Below are positions 7,366-20,684 of a stretch of 64,000 nt of DNA, in pieces. The stretch comes from Corynebacterium incognita (GTDB lineage: Bacteria > Actinomycetota > Actinomycetes > Mycobacteriales > Mycobacteriaceae). The stretch is from NCBI RefSeq assembly GCF_014217255.1, contig NZ_CP059404.1:1984001-2048000 (forward strand), written 5' to 3'. Within the stretch, counting starts at the first letter, position 1. Every line of letters begins with the position of its first letter. Position numbers and translations under genes: made by a program. Below the pieces are notes generated by a model, which was not told the DNA's origin, ran no database searches, and saw nothing but the letters and a program-made list of their open reading frames with translations.

Positions 7366-9750
7366 CTAGACCGTTACCTGTGCCGCGGCCGCCGAGTCCT
7401 GTTCATCGCGTGGGGAGTTGCCGCCCGTCGATTGTGTGAGGGCCTCGCCTTCCACGTCCAAGTTGGGGAGGATCTTATCCAGCCACTTTGGCAGTTTCCA
7501 GGCGCGGTCATCCAGTAGGAACATCGTGGCCGGGATGATCATCATGCGCACCACGAACGCGTCGAAGGCCACCGCGACCGCCAGAGCAAAGCCCATGGTC
7601 TTGATGAAGGGTTCGTCGATAAGCATGAAGGCCGCGAACACGGAGATCATAATCAGCGCCGCGGCCGTGACCACGCGGGCGCCGTGTTTGAAACCGTTCG
7701 ACGTTGCGTTGCCCGCGGTCTTGCCGTGGACGAAGCCCTCGCGCATGCGGGTGACCAGGAATACCTGGTAGTCCATCGCCAGGCCGAAGACCAGGCCGAT
7801 GAGCATGATGGGCAGGAAGGACAGTAGTGGCTGCGGGTCGTCGATAATGCCGAACATGCCCTCCTGGAACACCGCGACCGTCACGCCGAACGCGGCGGCG
7901 ACAGACAGGCCGAATCCCAGCGCGGCGATGAGCGGCACCCATATGGAACGGAAGACCAGCATGAGAACGATGAACGCCAAACCCAAAACGATGGCGATGT
8001 AGGGCAGGAGGACGTCAGTGAGGCGCTCGGAGATGTCGTCGAACACCGGGGTGATGCCGGTGATGCCGAAGGTGGCGCCGGTGGATTCCTCGAACGCGCC
8101 CTGGTGTTCGCGCAGCGCATTGAGGGTGTCGGTGGTCTTCTCATCGGTGGCGCCGGTGGACGGGGTGATCATGATCTGCGCGGCGTCCATGTCCTTGGTG
8201 GTCTGGACAATCTGCGCGTTGGCCACGCCTTCGGTCTCATTGAAAGACTTCAATGCCTCGTGGAACGCAGCCATGCGGTCTTGCTTGTCGACGTTCTGTG
8301 CGTCCACATAGGCGATCATCGGGGCATTGCGGCCCGGGCCGAAGGCCTCTTCGGTCATCTCGTAGGCGGTGCGCTGTGGACTGCCCAGCTTGGACGTGCC
8401 GTCGGTGGGCATGGCCAGTTGCAGGTTCGCGGCGGGCAGTGCCAGGATGCCCAGCAGGACCACACCGGCCACGAGGTGCATAATGGGGCGCTTGCGGATA
8501 CGGCGCACCCAGAGTAGGCCCATGGTGGGCTTCTCGTCCTCCGGGTCCGGGACCTTCGGGCCGGGGAAACGCAGCGCGAACACGCGCGTGCCCAACAGGC
8601 CGAGCAGGGCCGGGAGGAACGTGATGGCCACCAGTACGGCGAGCGCCACGGTCATGGCCGCGGCGATGGCCATGGCAGTGAGGAACGGGATGTTGATGAT
8701 CGACAGCGCGGCCAGTGCGATAAGAACGGTGATGCCGGCGAAGACCACGGACGAACCCGCGGTGCCCACGGCCATGCCCATGGCGTGTGCTCGGGTGTCC
8801 TTGTCCATCTTCTTCAGCTCTGCCGCGAGCTCCTTGGGGCTCAAGTCGTTGAGTCCAGAGGAGGTGATGAGCTGATTGCGGAAGCGCGCGACAATAAACA
8901 GTGCGTAGTCGATGCCCACGGCCAGGCCGATCATGGAGGCCAGCATCGGGGTCATGTCATTGATGGAGTCCGTAAACAGGGTGCCCAGCTGGACGCCGAG
9001 GATGCCCACGCCCACGCCAATGACGGCGGAGATGAGCGGCGTACCCGCGGCCACGAAGGAGCCGAAGGTGATGAGCAAGACGATGGCCGCCACGGCTAGG
9101 CCGATGGTCTCGGCTTTCATGTCCATCTCGCCCGCGGCCTGGAACACAGTGCCCTGGTAGGCCACTTGGAGGTCGCCGTCGTCGTAATCGGCAACGATGT
9201 CCTTCACCGCCTGGAGATCCCCGTCGGGTACCTCCATGGTGCTCGGGGCATCGAAGGTGAAGTTGATGAGACCAGTGGACTGATCCTCGCTCAACGGGGA
9301 CAGTGCCTGGAGGTTGTCGTCGATGACCGGCTGCGGCATGCCTTGAGCCTTCATCTGCTTGCCCATCTGGGCTTCCATTCCCTTGGCGGCCATAACGGGG
9401 TTGACGATGGCCTCGGCGTCTTTGTAGGAGGCGGCGCCCTTGATGTCGTCAGCCAGGGCGCTGACTTCCTGCATGACCTCGGGATCGGTGAGCTTCTTGC
9501 CCTCGGGGGCCTTGACGACGACCGTGCCGGCCGGCTCACTCATGGCGTCGCCGTCGGTGCCAAAGCGGTCGTTCATCTGCTCCATGGTGACTGTGGAGTC
9601 CATGTCTGGCATGGAGAAGCTGGGGGAGGGGTCTTTGGCGAAGTTGGCCGCCAGGCCGCCGAGTGCGACGAGCAGCACCAGCCAGAAGGCGAGGAAGGGC
9701 CACGCGGTCCGATAGGACCAACGGCCAAGTTTGTACAGGAACTTTGACAT
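7366..9750 (-). CDS. MMPL-family (RND) transporter, CmpL-like
   Basis: Inner-membrane transporter of 794 aa with the RND layout: one N-terminal helix, a large extracytoplasmic loop (about 40-195), five or six helices, a second large loop, then five or six helices. The proton-relay Asp-Tyr pairs are visible in GLAVGIDYALFIVARFR and GLAMDYQVFLVTRMREG. Corynebacterial MMPL proteins move mycolic-acid glycolipids or related envelope lipids; this one lacks the long MmpL3-type C-terminal domain. ATG 9750 has AAGGA ten bases upstream; an open frame continues to 9867 but runs through the promoter region. It is cotranscribed with the tetR gene behind it. Confidence 0.85.
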   Translation of the reverse strand: MSKFLYKLGRWSYRTAWPFLAFWLVLLVALGGLAANFAKDPSPSFSMPDMDSTVTMEQMNDRFGTDGDAMSEPAGTVVVKAPEGKKLTDPEVMQEVSALADDIKGAASYKDAEAIVNPVMAAKGMEAQMGKQMKAQGMPQPVIDDNLQALSPLSEDQSTGLINFTFDAPSTMEVPDGDLQAVKDIVADYDDGDLQVAYQGTVFQAAGEMDMKAETIGLAVAAIVLLITFGSFVAAGTPLISAVIGVGVGILGVQLGTLFTDSINDMTPMLASMIGLAVGIDYALFIVARFRNQLITSSGLNDLSPKELAAELKKMDKDTRAHAMGMAVGTAGSSVVFAGITVLIALAALSIINIPFLTAMAIAAAMTVALAVLVAITFLPALLGLLGTRVFALRFPGPKVPDPEDEKPTMGLLWVRRIRKRPIMHLVAGVVLLGILALPAANLQLAMPTDGTSKLGSPQRTAYEMTEEAFGPGRNAPMIAYVDAQNVDKQDRMAAFHEALKSFNETEGVANAQIVQTTKDMDAAQIMITPSTGATDEKTTDTLNALREHQGAFEESTGATFGITGITPVFDDISERLTDVLLPYIAIVLGLAFIVLMLVFRSIWVPLIAALGFGLSVAAAFGVTVAVFQEGMFGIIDDPQPLLSFLPIMLIGLVFGLAMDYQVFLVTRMREGFVHGKTAGNATSNGFKHGARVVTAAALIMISVFAAFMLIDEPFIKTMGFALAVAVAFDAFVVRMMIIPATMFLLDDRAWKLPKWLDKILPNLDVEGEALTQSTGGNSPRDEQDSAAAAQVTV

Positions 9751-9775
9751 TGAAGAGTATCCTTGAACAGGTAAG

Positions 9776-9830
9776 TTGCAGTGACCGTGCAAGATTACAT
9801 CTGTCGTGCAAAGTTGCGCAACTTGTGCAA
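9776..9830. promoter_or_regulatory. Probable TetR operator cluster, MMPL / membrane gene
   Basis: Between the divergent starts at 9750 and 9868 lies the perfect 14-bp palindrome AAGTTGCGCAACTT (9811-9824). It is flanked by three GTGCAA half-sites (9787, 9806, 9825) and the inverted pair TTGCA/TGCAA at 9776-9792. The cluster covers the expected promoter of the MMPL-tetR operon. Binding by the adjacent TetR protein is inferred. Confidence 0.55.
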
Positions 9831-9854
9831 AATTTCCGGCCGGTGTCAGGCTTG

Positions 9855-9867
9855 TAGACTTGCACAC
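9855..9867 (+). promoter_or_regulatory. Leaderless -10 box TAGACT
   Basis: TAGACT at 9855-9860 is followed by exactly seven bases and then the ATG at 9868, with no ribosome-binding site. Transcription should therefore start at or next to the A of the start codon. Confidence 0.55.
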
Positions 9868-10527
9868 ATGCTCCTTGCTGCCGTCACCAACGCCTTTGCC
9901 GATTCGCTTAATGCCCTGCTCATCGGCGTCATCGTGGCGCTGGGCGTTATGCTGCCGCGCGGTAGCTACAAAAAGGTCGTGCCGCTGCTCATTGTCGGCG
10001 ACTGGTTGGGCGTCTTCACCCTCGCGGTGGCGTGCATGGCCATCTTCGACGGTTTAGATGAGCAGGTGAAACGGCTGACAGAATCCCCGGTATTTGGCTG
10101 GGCACTCATCGCGGTGGGCGTGCTCATCGGTGTGCTCACCCTCATGAGCAAGCCCGGCGGCGACAACAAGCTCGTCGCCCGCATCCTGGAACCGCTGCGC
10201 GCCCCGGGGCCAAAGACCGTGCTGGTGGGCTTCATCCTCGGCTTCGTCCAATCAATCACCTCCGCCCCCTTCTTCGCCGGGTTGCTGTTCCTCATCGCCG
10301 GCGGCTACGGCCCGCTCATCAACTACGGCGGCATGGTCATCTACGCTTCCATCGCGCTCTCGCTGCCCACACTCAGTGCCCTCCTGGTCGGCTGGGTTCG
10401 TTCCTACCCTGACAGCCCCGCTGGCCGCGCGTTTGCCGCTGCCCGTGACAAGGCGGATGAACTGTCCAAAGCCAGCGGATTTGTGGTCGCCGGGATCCTT
10501 ATCGCCCTTGGTGTGGTCTACCTCTAG
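9868..10527 (+). CDS. Small integral membrane protein, GAP/LysE-like
   Basis: A 219-residue polytopic membrane protein with about six hydrophobic helices and no soluble domain. The first half has a helix-Pro-Arg-Gly loop (MLPRGSYKK) and the second half GFILGFVQSITSAPFFAGLLF. The overall look recalls actinobacterial GAP-family or LysE-like small transporters, but I do not recognise a diagnostic motif. The start at ATG 9868 follows a -10 box by seven bases, so the mRNA is leaderless. It is divergent from the MMPL-tetR operon and shares its palindrome-rich control region, so coordinate control is possible. Confidence 0.6.
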   Translation: MLLAAVTNAFADSLNALLIGVIVALGVMLPRGSYKKVVPLLIVGDWLGVFTLAVACMAIFDGLDEQVKRLTESPVFGWALIAVGVLIGVLTLMSKPGGDNKLVARILEPLRAPGPKTVLVGFILGFVQSITSAPFFAGLLFLIAGGYGPLINYGGMVIYASIALSLPTLSALLVGWVRSYPDSPAGRAFAAARDKADELSKASGFVVAGILIALGVVYL

Positions 10528-16820: not shown

Positions 16821-16892
16821 GTGCCGGGTGGAGGATGTAGAATTTGGGGGAACATTTGTTGAATTCCCCCACACATGAGAAGGAATGATTCC

Positions 16893-18356
16893 GTGAGCGA
16901 GAACGGCAACCTCAGCAACGCAGGACACCTGGACTGGGACCAGCGCATTGAAAACGCGCAGGAAATGATCCCGCTGATTCACCAGCTGCACCGCAACAAC
17001 AACGTCGTCACCTCTGTTTTCGGCCGCCTCCTCGTAGGCGTGACGGACATTGACATCATCAAGTCCCACCGCTACGCCCGCCGCATCACCGACCGCGAGC
17101 TGAACACCGCCGAGACCCTGCCCATCCTGCGTGAGCTGGTGGACATGAACCTGGGCACCGCAAGCCTGGACCTGGGCCGCCTGGCCCAGGGCTTCCAGGA
17201 CTCCGGCAGCGAGGACCTGCGTGGCTACCTTGAGTCCGAGCTCGCAGAGATCGTTGGCGCCGGCTCTAAGGCTGAGCCGCGCGACGTCGTGCTCTACGGC
17301 TTCGGCCGCATCGGCCGCCTCCTGGCCCGCATCCTCATCGCTCGCGAGGCTGCCTACGGCGGCGTGCGCCTGCGCGCCATCGTCGTGCGCAAGAAGGGTG
17401 ACGGTGACATTATCAAGCGCGCCTCGCTGCTGCGCCGCGACTCCGTGCACGGCGCCTTCAACGGCACCATCACCGTGGACGAGGAGAACGAGGTTATCTG
17501 GGCCAACGGCACCAAGATCCAGATGATCTACGCCAACAACCCGGCGGAGATCGACTACACCTCCTACGGCATCGACAACGCCATCGTGGTGGATAACACC
17601 GGCGCGTGGCGCGACCGCGAGGGCCTGTCGCAGCACCTGGAGTCCAAGGGCGTGGACCGCGTTCTGCTCACCGCACCGGGCAAGGGCGACATCAAGAACA
17701 TTGTCTACGGCATCAACCACGGCGACGTCGTGGACGAGGACAAGATCCTCTCCGCAGCATCCTGCACCACCAACGGCATCACCCCGGTGCTCAAGGTCAT
17801 CAACGACCGCTACGGTGTGGCCCACGGCCATGTGGAGACCGCGCACTCGTTCACCAATGACCAGAACCTCATTGACAACTTCCACAAGGCAGACCGCCGC
17901 GGTCGCGCCGCCGGCCTGAACATGGTGCTCACCGCCACCGGCGCGGCGAAGGCTGTGGCGAAGGCTGTGCCGGAGTTCGCTGGCAAGCTCACCGGCAACG
18001 CCATCCGCGTTCCTACCCCGGACGTCTCCATGGCTGTGCTCAACCTGGAGCTGGAGAAGGAGACCACCAAGGAGGAGGTCAACGACTTCCTGCGTAACGT
18101 GGCTCTGCACTCCGACCTGCGCCAGCAGATCAGCTACATCGCCTCCCCGGAGGTCGTGTCGTCTGACTTCGTGGGCTCCACCCACGCTGGCGTTGTGGAC
18201 GGCTTGGCGACGATCGCGTCCGGCAAGCACCTCGTGCTCTACGTCTGGTACGACAACGAGTTCGGCTACTCCAACCAGGTCATCCGCATCGTCGAAGACC
18301 TGGCCGGCGCCCGCCCGACCGTGCTGCCGAAGCGCGTAGCTCCAGAAGAGCTGTAG
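16893..18356 (+). CDS. gapB: Glyceraldehyde-3-phosphate dehydrogenase GapB
   Basis: Phosphorylating GAPDH of 487 aa. About 125 N-terminal residues precede the Rossmann start VVLYGFGRIGRLLARIL; this extension is a feature of corynebacterial GapB. The catalytic Cys is in SAASCTTNGITPVLKV, the sugar-phosphate site in TATGAAKAV, and WYDNEFGYSNQV closes the domain. GapB in C. glutamicum works mainly in gluconeogenesis with NADP, which I infer also here. GTG 16893 has AAGGA eight bases upstream; the ATG at 16875 overlaps that site and is rejected. A strong terminator follows. Confidence 0.93.
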   Translation: MSENGNLSNAGHLDWDQRIENAQEMIPLIHQLHRNNNVVTSVFGRLLVGVTDIDIIKSHRYARRITDRELNTAETLPILRELVDMNLGTASLDLGRLAQGFQDSGSEDLRGYLESELAEIVGAGSKAEPRDVVLYGFGRIGRLLARILIAREAAYGGVRLRAIVVRKKGDGDIIKRASLLRRDSVHGAFNGTITVDEENEVIWANGTKIQMIYANNPAEIDYTSYGIDNAIVVDNTGAWRDREGLSQHLESKGVDRVLLTAPGKGDIKNIVYGINHGDVVDEDKILSAASCTTNGITPVLKVINDRYGVAHGHVETAHSFTNDQNLIDNFHKADRRGRAAGLNMVLTATGAAKAVAKAVPEFAGKLTGNAIRVPTPDVSMAVLNLELEKETTKEEVNDFLRNVALHSDLRQQISYIASPEVVSSDFVGSTHAGVVDGLATIASGKHLVLYVWYDNEFGYSNQVIRIVEDLAGARPTVLPKRVAPEEL

Positions 18357-18440: not shown

Positions 18441-18486
18441 TATTTCTGTATCCAGCCTTTTGTTCAGTCATAGCGGTGGACAACCG

Positions 18487-18807
18487 TTAGGCAGAGTCAT
18501 GATGAGCAGAGACCGGTTTATCCCAAACTGCGAAGGCAAACACGACGACGCATGAAACAACGGCGATCGTGAGAGCGTAGCTGGGCTCTTCTGGGAGCAG
18601 ATAGGCCACCGCCGTCGAGAGAAAGAGAAACACCAGCAGGGAAAGTGGTGCGGGCTTGTCCTTAGCGGGGGCGAAGATTTTTCGCCCGACTGCAATCACA
18701 ACAAGAAGTAGCACTGGAACTAGGGCGAGCCACAGATTTCCCATTGCCAAGAAGTAGATGTATGCGCCGAACGCTGCGCAAAGAGCTGCGCTTTGAACGA
18801 GTTTCAT
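18487..18807 (-). CDS. Small four-helix membrane protein, possible immunity
   Basis: A 106-residue protein of unknown family with four hydrophobic segments: KLVQSAALCAAFGAYIYFLA, LWLALVPVLLLVVIAVG, LSLLVFLFLSTAVAYLL and ALTIAVVSCVVVFAFAVW. ATG 18807 is chosen; an AAGGA lies 13 bases upstream, rather far. In-frame ATG 18867 and GTG 19077 would overlap the bacteriocin-like reading frame and add residues that look non-coding. It starts 41 bp after the halocin-C8-like pseudogene on the same strand. Small multi-span proteins often give self-protection beside bacteriocin genes, so an immunity role is a hypothesis. Local base composition is more AT-rich than the neighbours. Confidence 0.55.
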   Translation of the reverse strand: MKLVQSAALCAAFGAYIYFLAMGNLWLALVPVLLLVVIAVGRKIFAPAKDKPAPLSLLVFLFLSTAVAYLLPEEPSYALTIAVVSCVVVFAFAVWDKPVSAHHDSA

Positions 18808-18848
18808 TGCCGATTCAAGTTCCTTAACGGTAGACAGGATGCTCGTTA

Positions 18849-19644
18849 CTATTTTGTATCCGCGCATACCCGCTGCTTTGCACCGCTGCAGCCAAACATA
18901 CTGATGAGCCCCAGCACAGCGCCGCAGGCTATGCCGCCAACGACGGAGATACCAAGCAACGCGCAAACGATGGCAGCACCGGCTCCACTCCCAACAGTGC
19001 ACAGAGAATTTACTGATCTCAGACAAGCATCGTAGCCGGTGCCGTAATCGGGAGCAGAAGCTCGTGTAGTGCTTCACAGTGTTGGCTTGTCTTCAGAACG
19101 AATGACTTCTCCTGTTTCATCAATCGTACCTTCCCATATCTGCTGGGCCTCTGAGAACACCTCAGCGTCGAATCCGTTGGTTGTAGTGTTTTTCCCGGAA
19201 GCGATATTCTTGCTCCTTCACAACCGTTCGTAGATTCATATCAACGGCGTGAAGCTCGATTGCCGTGGTGTCGCTGCCGATATTGGTGGCAGAATAGATG
19301 ACAAAGTTTTCTTTGTCTCGCCTTTCGACGATGTAGTTATCAGTATTAAGCTCAGAATTACTTGCCGTATAGCCCTTTACCCCCAGAAGATGGTCCTGTC
19401 CTTGTGAAATGCGGCGGGGTGACTTGTCAGGGAAGGCGATCCGGAGGACCTCGCTTTTTTGGCGGCCAGTCGCCAGTCTTTTTTCTACGTCGCTAGGAAG
19501 CTGGATCGATTGGACATTGATGGGTTGTGTCGATGGGTTGTGTCGCGCTTGCAGAAGGAATTTCTACAAGAAAGAGCGCGCAGGTGATTGTTGCCAATGT
19601 GGCAATGATTTTTGCAACGTTCCGGTGGGCTGTTCCCGAATCAA
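18849..19644 (-). pseudogene. Broken secreted protein, halocin C8-like C-terminus
   Basis: A degraded gene read in three frames. AGGAGG (19650-19655) precedes TTG 19644. A signal peptide follows (NVAKIIATLATITCALFLVE, ending PSASA), then about 150 residues in another frame (including GVKGYTASNSELNTDNYIVE), then TNGFDAEVFSEAQQIWEG. The C-terminal part, 18849-19073, has six cysteines as C-x7-CTVG...-C-ALLGI-x7-C. That order and spacing match the mature halocin C8 peptide as I remember it. Damage: a probable one-base loss near 19612-19641, a 13-bp tandem duplication at 19520-19545, one extra base near 19195, and an in-frame TGA at 19074-19076. Repaired, it would be about 260 residues, near the 283 of the halocin C8 precursor. 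Product is unlikely to be made. Confidence 0.65.
19520..19545. repeat. 13-bp tandem duplication causing a frameshift
   Basis: ATGGGTTGTGTCG occurs twice head to tail (19520-19532, 19533-19545). Removing one copy joins the signal-peptide frame to the following coding frame (SASATQPINVQSIQ), so the duplication itself is an inactivating lesion of the halocin-like gene. Confidence 0.85.
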
Positions 19645-19700
19645 AGTTTCCTCCTGAGAGAGAAGTTATAATTCGATTGTGATTGGGTATAGGTAGTCAG

Positions 19701-19746
19701 CTAAAATCTTGCGAGGCCTGCGGAGCCCTAATTGCGGGGTTAGGGC
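19701..19746 (-). terminator. Possible terminator after FAH gene
   Basis: GCCCTAA (19725-19731) and TTAGGGC (19740-19746) form a short stem just past the stop of the fumarylacetoacetase-family gene. A second weak GC-rich hairpin and ATTTTA follow on the minus strand. Termination strength is uncertain. Confidence 0.35.
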
Positions 19747-19751
19747 GCAAT

Positions 19752-20684
19752 CTAGTTAGATTGAATTAGCCCTTCGATATCGTTCAACCGCGTCACGTTC
19801 TCGATTTGGCCGAGTCCTTCAATCGTGATTCGTGTGGGTTGGCCGTTGCGGAGGAAGGCCTGCGGTTCGCGGGCGAAGCCGACGCCCTCCGGGGTGCCGG
19901 TGGCGATGACATCGCCTGGGTTGAGCGGGTAGAGGTGGGAGCAGAACTCGATGAGCTTAGCCACGGAGAAGATGAGGTTGTCGGTGTTGTCGTGCTGGCG
20001 GACCTCACCGTCAACGGTGGTGATGAGCGATGCCTTATTGCCCGGAGCCCACTCGTCGCTGGTGGTCAGCCATGGGCCGAAGCCCGCGGTGCGGTAGAAC
20101 GACTTGCCCTGGTGGAACTGGGTGGTGCGGCGCTGGAAGTCGCGCAGCGTGTAGTCGTTCATGATGGCGTAGCCGGCGGCGTAGTCCAGCGCCTCCGCCG
20201 CGGAAACCTGGTGCGCGCGTTGCCCGATGACCACGGCGAGCTCGCCTTCGTAGTCCGGCTGGGCCTGGGCGAAGGGCGGGAGATCCACGTCGTCGAAAGG
20301 CCCGGTGAGCGCGTCGGCGAACTTGATGAACAACGTCGGGTGATCGGGGAAATCGCGGCCCATCTCGCGGACGTGTTTGGCGTAGTTCAGGCCGGTACAG
20401 ATGATTTTCTCCGGGCGCGGGACAACGGGAGCCAAGTCCTTGCGCCCGAACTTGATCGAGCGCGCCGCGGCGACGCCCACGGTGGCGGACTCGGCGACAT
20501 CGCGCCAGTCTGGGTACTGGAGGAGCTCGCCGACGTCAGTGACGCCCGGGATGAGGATCGCTGAACCTAGGGCCTCACCGGAGGCGGGGTGGGTGGCGGC
20601 GAAGTCAATCGGCTCGGTGATCACGGCTGCGGCGGTGGCCACCGCGTCTGAGCGCTCGTCGGTGCGGATGGTCGCTAACTTCAT
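19752..20684 (-). CDS. Fumarylacetoacetate hydrolase-family protein
   Basis: A 310-residue enzyme of the FAH fold, cytosolic metal-dependent hydrolases or decarboxylases acting on 3-oxo acids. After an N-terminal domain, the catalytic region has ICTGLNYAKHVREMG, the metal ligands in QPDYEGELAVVIGQ, NDYTLRDFQRR, KSFYRTAGFGPWLTT, and ATGTPEGVGFAREP. These are general FAH motifs and do not fix the substrate: oxaloacetate decarboxylase, acylpyruvase or an aromatic-degradation step are all possible. The start is three bases after the stop of the second pth gene, so it is cotranscribed with pth and perhaps rplY read-through. Confidence 0.85.
   Translation of the reverse strand: MKLATIRTDERSDAVATAAAVITEPIDFAATHPASGEALGSAILIPGVTDVGELLQYPDWRDVAESATVGVAAARSIKFGRKDLAPVVPRPEKIICTGLNYAKHVREMGRDFPDHPTLFIKFADALTGPFDDVDLPPFAQAQPDYEGELAVVIGQRAHQVSAAEALDYAAGYAIMNDYTLRDFQRRTTQFHQGKSFYRTAGFGPWLTTSDEWAPGNKASLITTVDGEVRQHDNTDNLIFSVAKLIEFCSHLYPLNPGDVIATGTPEGVGFAREPQAFLRNGQPTRITIEGLGQIENVTRLNDIEGLIQSN

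What the first reader, a model, noticed from the sequence alone, without database searches (positions are those of the whole stretch)
18849..19644. Decayed halocin C8-like bacteriocin precursor in a Corynebacterium
The tract between the gapB terminator and the FAH gene looks empty unless minus-strand frames are joined. Then a Sec signal peptide, a middle domain and a Cys-rich C-terminus appear. The C-terminus has C-x7-C, CTVG, C-x11-C and CALLGI, C-x12-C. Halocin C8, as I recall it, has C-x7-CTIG, C-x11-C and CGLLGI, C-x13-C. Repaired length is about 260 residues against 283 for the halocin C8 precursor. This archaeal-type bacteriocin fold in a corynebacterium, caught while decaying, is the most unusual thing in the window.
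Basis: partly seen in the sequence, partly recalled or inferred. Interest (0 to 1): 0.8.

Follow-up and report, generated by a model that had tools for sequence, protein, structure and literature searches.

The report
Broken bacteriocin gene, intact neighbour gene
This Corynebacterium carries the wreck of a gene for a halocin C8-like antimicrobial peptide, a family already in the databases, beside an intact small membrane-protein gene that may once have protected the maker and may have been kept after the weapon was lost.

Summary
The finding holds. Four minus-strand pieces between gapB and the FAH gene match, in order, one intact 254-residue protein of Corynebacterium riegelii (pairwise E 8e-9, 4e-21, 6e-9, 2e-29). 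The pieces lie in three frames, with an in-frame stop as well, so the gene is broken. The C-terminal piece passes the curated cut-off of NCBIfam TIGR04449, halocin C8-like domain (35.3 bits against 24) and has six cysteines spaced 7-11-12-11-7.

The family is known. A C. auris protein already bears the name, and 7 of 242 genomes of the genus carry the domain. So this is a decayed new member of a known kind, not a new archaeal trait in bacteria.

Its relatives lie directly behind all four six-cysteine loci found, three of them with broken precursors, and behind none of five eight-cysteine loci. I infer a bacteriocin-immunity cassette whose immunity gene outlived the bacteriocin. That role is untested, and the neighbour would escape damage by chance in this window with probability about 0.3.

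The parts
18852..19073 (-). C-terminal piece of the broken precursor: halocin C8-like domain with six cysteines; the stop codon is 18849-18851
   Evidence: TIGR04449, 35.3 bits, cut-off 24, E 1.8e-8; 63% identical to the C. riegelii protein, E 2e-29; cysteine spacing 7-11-12-11-7
19077..19217 (-). Piece of the pro-region just before the C8 domain, same frame, cut off from it by a stop
   Evidence: Matches residues 149-187 of the C. riegelii protein, E 6e-9; frames
19165..19563 (-). Middle piece of the pro-region, in a second frame
   Evidence: Matches residues 26-146 of the C. riegelii protein, 34% identity, E 4e-21
19496..19696 (-). N-terminal piece with the signal peptide, in a third frame; the matched part is about 19526-19621 and the start is uncertain
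   Evidence: Matches residues 5-41 of the C. riegelii protein, E 8e-9; tblastn piece 19621-19526
18490..18807 (-). Intact gene for a 106-residue, very hydrophobic protein (probable membrane protein, candidate immunity protein); the stop codon follows at 18487-18489
   Evidence: Open frame; 38% identical to the gene behind the intact C. riegelii precursor, E 9e-9; hydropathy; a near-identical database copy is also open

Best explanation
The stretch is what remains of a two-gene bacteriocin cassette, probably acquired from outside. The first gene made a secreted precursor: a signal peptide, a pro-region, and a C-terminal cysteine-rich halocin C8-like domain that would be cut free outside the cell and act on rival cells, as halocin C8 does. 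It is now broken by at least two changes of frame and one in-frame stop and cannot make the full precursor. The second gene, for a small membrane protein, is intact and is probably the immunity gene, kept because it still protects against relatives that make the peptide. Shown: family membership of the C-terminal piece, the broken state, the intact relative, the neighbour gene and its linkage. Inferred: antimicrobial action, release by a protease, the immunity role, and selection for keeping the neighbour. The confidence given is for the whole reading; for the decayed precursor alone I would say 0.97.
For: Family cut-off met by the C-terminal piece. Four pieces match one intact protein in order; shuffle control. 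The neighbour gene is related to the gene behind the intact precursor. Linkage: it follows 4 of 4 six-cysteine loci (window, C. riegelii loci 1 and 2, G225 remnant) and 0 of 5 eight-cysteine loci (G117, G228, G014, G154, G074). In those four cassettes the precursor is intact in 1 and the neighbour in 4. The GC of the wreck is 0.51 and of the neighbour 0.54, against 0.64-0.65 in the flanking genes.
Against: No function was tested. Halocin C8 has its immunity part fused in the precursor (passage of PMC11509114), so a separate immunity gene is not needed by analogy. Six of the ten neighbour-family loci I count have no C8 trace at E 0.1 within the fetched flanks, and two of those six copies (G080, G074) look broken themselves. 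At the wreck's own lesion rate the shorter neighbour gene would escape with probability about 0.30, so its intactness here proves little. The linked loci share descent.
Confidence: 0.6

Rival explanations
1. A decayed C8-like precursor gene as above, but the neighbour membrane protein has nothing to do with immunity. It is a hitch-hiker or has another role, and immunity lay in the precursor's own pro-region, as in halocin C8.
For: Halocin C8 immunity is part of the precursor (passage of PMC11509114). TIGR04450 is described as an immunity/bacteriocin fusion. The neighbour family occurs without a detectable C8 trace at 6 of the 10 loci counted, and 0 of 5 eight-cysteine loci have it beside them.
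Against: The neighbour follows 4 of 4 six-cysteine loci at four different genomic places, and stays open where the precursor is broken in three of them.
Confidence: 0.34
2. The breaks are sequencing or assembly errors and the gene is intact in the living cell.
For: None found. The sequence reads were not available.
Against: At least three breaks fall inside about 800 bases while the flanking genes are open over their whole length, in a single-contig genome listed as 99.92% complete. No intact copy close to the window's sequence appeared among the hits (one search scored only the 8000 best candidates). Broken copies are also seen in C. riegelii locus 2, G225 and G074.
Confidence: 0.03
3. The C-terminal piece is still made as a short peptide without a leader and works inside the cell or after lysis.
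For: A 57-residue protein from this piece is in the protein database, so a gene caller proposed it (P0001).
Against: P0001 begins after the first of the six cysteines and has no signal peptide.
Confidence: 0.03

Closest known systems
Halocin C8-like domain proteins of Corynebacterium (NCBIfam TIGR04449; intact C. riegelii FDAARGOS_1114 protein, C. auris and C. cystitidis records)
   Same: Same order of parts, and the C-terminal domain is over the curated cut-off. The C. riegelii protein is 63% identical in that domain, with the same cysteine spacing and a related gene behind it.
   Different: The window's copy is broken. C. auris and C. cystitidis are of the eight-cysteine type; the P0002 and P0008 sequences show this by eye.
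Halocin C8 of haloarchaea (ProC8: halocin C8 plus the immunity part HalI)
   Same: A secreted precursor whose C-terminal cysteine-rich peptide follows a pro-region.
   Different: Halocin C8 is exported by the Tat pathway and carries immunity in the same precursor (passage of PMC11509114). The window's signal piece shows no twin arginine by eye, and a separate candidate immunity gene follows. The cysteine pattern of halocin C8 was only recalled, not tested.
TIGR04450 Gpos_C8_like, putative immunity/bacteriocin fusion protein
   Same: A family named for Gram-positive bacteria with a C8-like end; some Corynebacterium relatives match it weakly.
   Different: The window has no match to it; 3 of 242 genomes of the genus do, 1 over the cut-off.

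Membership tests
TIGR04449 halocin C8-like domain | Profile score over the curated cut-off of 24 bits | tested here: met
   35.3 bits, residues 16-72 of the piece; 33.1 bits in the genome search
TIGR04449 halocin C8-like domain | Domain at the C-terminus of a secreted precursor | tested here: met
   In the wreck the pieces match an intact precursor in order; secretion judged by eye only
TIGR04449 halocin C8-like domain | Antimicrobial action of the released peptide | not testable with these tools
   No assay; the window's gene is broken
NF040679 halocin C8 precursor-like protein | Profile score over the cut-off of 200 bits | tested here: not met
   18.4 bits for the C-terminal piece; 27.3 even for the intact C. 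riegelii protein
TIGR04450 Gpos_C8_like | Profile score over the cut-off of 27 bits | tested here: not met
   No match in the window's genome
Halocin C8 proper (ProC8) | Tat export signal | tested here: inconclusive
   No twin arginine seen by eye in the signal piece or the C. riegelii protein; no predictor run
Halocin C8 proper (ProC8) | Immunity carried by the N-terminal part of the precursor (HalI) | not testable with these tools
   The feature is taken from a passage of PMC11509114; no HalI sequence was compared
Bacteriocin immunity protein (neighbour gene) | Neighbour gene protects cells against the peptide | not testable with these tools
   Only linkage was tested: 4 of 4 six-cysteine loci against 0 of 5 eight-cysteine loci
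Saposin-like nested disulphides in the C8 domain | First cysteine pairs with last, and so on inward | not tested
   Suggested by mirror-like spacing only; full-length model too poor, domain job not accepted

The most novel reading that the evidence does not exclude
Corynebacteria carry a C8-like bacteriocin subtype with six symmetrically spaced cysteines and its own separate membrane immunity protein. The immunity gene commonly outlives the bacteriocin gene, so the window shows a resistant non-producer, and this unnamed membrane family could serve as a marker of past or present C8-like warfare. The mirror-image cysteine spacing, with two extra cysteines that come or go together between subtypes, further suggests nested disulphides of the saposin type.
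Probability: 0.35. Interest if true: 0.5.

Novelty: new member of a known kind. Interest (0 to 1): 0.33.

Why it matters
A peptide family best known from halophilic archaea turns out to be a rare, recurring and often broken trait of one bacterial genus: 7 of 242 genomes by profile, while in an even sample of 396 genomes of the phylum only the window's own genome has it. If the neighbour gene is the immunity gene, the genus offers a natural record of bacteriocin loss with immunity kept, and a separate immunity protein for a family in which the papers I saw passages of describe only a fused one. Host range, immunity and the releasing protease would become testable in a non-pathogenic laboratory corynebacterium.

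Tried and rejected
Rejected: chance open frames (shuffle control). A plasmid or phage link was looked for and not found: no match among plasmid records for two relatives and none among viral contigs for two relatives. The phage record collection was not searched. Sequencing error as the main cause is set out under rivals.

Led nowhere: the Pfam copy I could scan gave no family over its cut-off for the window pieces or for the C8-like precursors scanned. However, the protein database lists a newer Pfam entry, PF27906, on 5 of the 10 proteins; I did not see its name. No Pfam or NCBIfam family fits the neighbour protein (best E-values 0.0042 and 0.023, far under the cut-offs where shown). A search of solved structures with the precursor alignment gave one chain at E 1.7. 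The model of the intact C. riegelii precursor has mean pLDDT 48.2, so I ran no fold search; it only hints at a beta-rich middle and a helical end. A dedicated protease: a trypsin-like gene lies beside the C8 gene in G228 (L013:6518-7159), in that one locus only of those looked at, and relatives of it are common in the genus (211 of 242). A second ORF beside the C8 gene of G014 is not related to it. The promoter and terminator scan was no better than shuffles for promoters (1 found, mean 0.9) and weak for terminators (3 found, mean 1.3).

Against a clean count: one search puts all 7 genomes over the TIGR04449 cut-off, but the G154 protein scanned on its own scores 23.6, just under the cut-off of 24.

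Papers: PMC12893001, abstract and outline and passages. PMC11509114 and PMC10864542, passages only. PMC2566001 is not held. That C8-like bacteriocins of Corynebacterium are not treated in print rests on two searches of a partial library: 'halocin' with 'Corynebacterium', 8 papers, listing and starts of abstracts seen, and 'halocin C8-like' with 'Corynebacterium', none. Searches were also read as listings only.

Full report
What is there. The window is bases 1984001-2048000 of a single-contig genome of 2,348,605 bases. Between gapB (16875-18356, plus strand) and the FAH-like gene (19752-20684, minus strand) lie about 1.4 kb. On the minus strand they hold four pieces of one precursor and an intact gene for a small hydrophobic protein.

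The precursor. Each piece was compared on its own with the intact 254-residue protein of C. riegelii (L012:6700-7464). They match in order, with E 8e-9, 4e-21, 6e-9 and 2e-29. The C-terminal piece scores 35.3 bits with NCBIfam TIGR04449 (cut-off 24), E 1.8e-8; the other three pieces hit nothing over a cut-off there. tblastn of the intact relative against window 18480-19760 gives 118 bits at best, against at most 21.9 in 100 shuffled copies. The pieces are in three frames, and a stop lies between the last two, so there are at least three breaks.

Relatives. TIGR04449 is found in 7 of 242 genomes of the genus, all 7 over the cut-off in that search, although the G154 protein scanned alone is at 23.6, just under 24. 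In an even sample of 396 genomes of the phylum only the window's own genome has it. Of 14 control genomes only Haloferax volcanii rings. By tblastn I add a second, broken locus in C. riegelii and a 36-residue remnant in G225. That makes nine loci in eight genomes. Five look intact (C. riegelii locus 1, G117, G228, G014, G154) and four broken (window, C. riegelii locus 2, G225, G074). The set may be incomplete, since remnants were sought only around neighbour-family loci. In the search of 5.8 billion proteins 10 passed; only the 8000 best candidates were scored. Three carry named hosts: C. cystitidis, C. suedekumii and C. auris, the last already titled 'halocin C8-like domain-containing protein'. 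By eye the C. suedekumii protein P0007 loses the frame in its C-terminal domain, and P0009-P0011 start out of frame.

Two subtypes. The window and C. riegelii have six cysteines spaced 7-11-12-11-7; G117, G228 and G014 have eight, spaced 7-7-3-13-3-7-7. G154 and G074 align with these eight, and the G225 remnant keeps the 11-7 end of the six-cysteine pattern. Both patterns are mirror-symmetric, and the six-cysteine type lacks the third and sixth cysteine of the other. I infer nested disulphides in which those two cysteines pair. This was not tested: the full-length model is too poor (mean pLDDT 48.2) and the domain-only job was not accepted.

The neighbour gene. Window 18490-18807(-) codes for 106 residues, hydrophobic over most of its length, and is 38% identical over 92 residues to the gene behind the intact C. 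riegelii precursor. The family occurs in 8 of 242 genomes, at ten loci as I count the eleven rows (two rows of G080 being one locus in two frames). Four of the ten lie directly behind a six-cysteine C8 gene or remnant: the window, both C. riegelii loci, and G225 L026. None of the five eight-cysteine loci has it beside them; of those five genomes only G074 has a copy, about 450 kb away. By my arithmetic 4 of 4 against 0 of 5 is 1 in 126 by chance, but the loci share descent, so that figure flatters the link. The other six neighbour-family loci show no C8 trace at E 0.1 within the fetched flanks of about 1.5 kb. In the four cassettes the precursor is intact once and the neighbour four times. Two of the other six copies, in G080 and G074, look broken. 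A near-identical copy of the window's neighbour protein in the protein database is open, with two substitutions over 125 residues.

Reading. I commit to a decayed, probably acquired bacteriocin cassette with a probable orphan immunity gene. GC is 0.51 in the wreck and 0.54 in the neighbour gene, against 0.64 and 0.65 in the flanking genes. One search gave 24 relatives' FAH loci besides the window's own; the end of gapB was seen in five of these 24. In four of the five the gap holds an open frame of 275-292 residues that looks like a PPK2 kinase by eye, and in one it is only about 170 bases. The other 19 were not resolved. Maturation by an outside protease is inferred from halocin C8, whose protease is called unidentified in a passage of PMC12893001. 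The immunity role is inferred from linkage alone. Against it, at the wreck's lesion rate the shorter gene would stay unhit with probability about 0.30, and halocin C8 itself uses a fused immunity part (passage of PMC11509114).

Verdict. It is a decayed new member of a known family. The neighbour gene and the two cysteine subtypes are the parts worth a specialist's look.

Noticed in passing
L013:6518-7159 (G228), minus strand: A secreted trypsin-like protease gene (Pfam Trypsin, E 1.4e-6) lies directly behind an intact eight-cysteine C8-like gene. It could be a dedicated releasing protease, but relatives occur in 211 of 242 genomes of the genus, the best other one 37% identical or less.
   Followed up: partly
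P0007, P0009, P0010, P0011 (database proteins): Several database relatives of the C. riegelii precursor are frame-shifted in or near the C8 domain. Frequent loss and a switched gene were not told apart.
   Followed up: no
L012:5401-6627 (C. riegelii), L014:5143-6387 (G014), L015:5787-6977 and 8688-10028 (G154): Transposase-like genes lie within a few kb of three C8-like loci; the one of L012 by Pfam, the others by eye.
   Followed up: partly
L019-L024 (G244, G225, G080, G074, G118, G104): Relatives of the neighbour membrane protein stand alone, without a C8 trace nearby.
   Followed up: partly
window 19752-20684, minus strand, and its surroundings: In four of five relatives where it could be seen, a PPK2-like kinase gene (by eye) sits between gapB and the FAH gene, where the window has the cassette.
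   Followed up: partly
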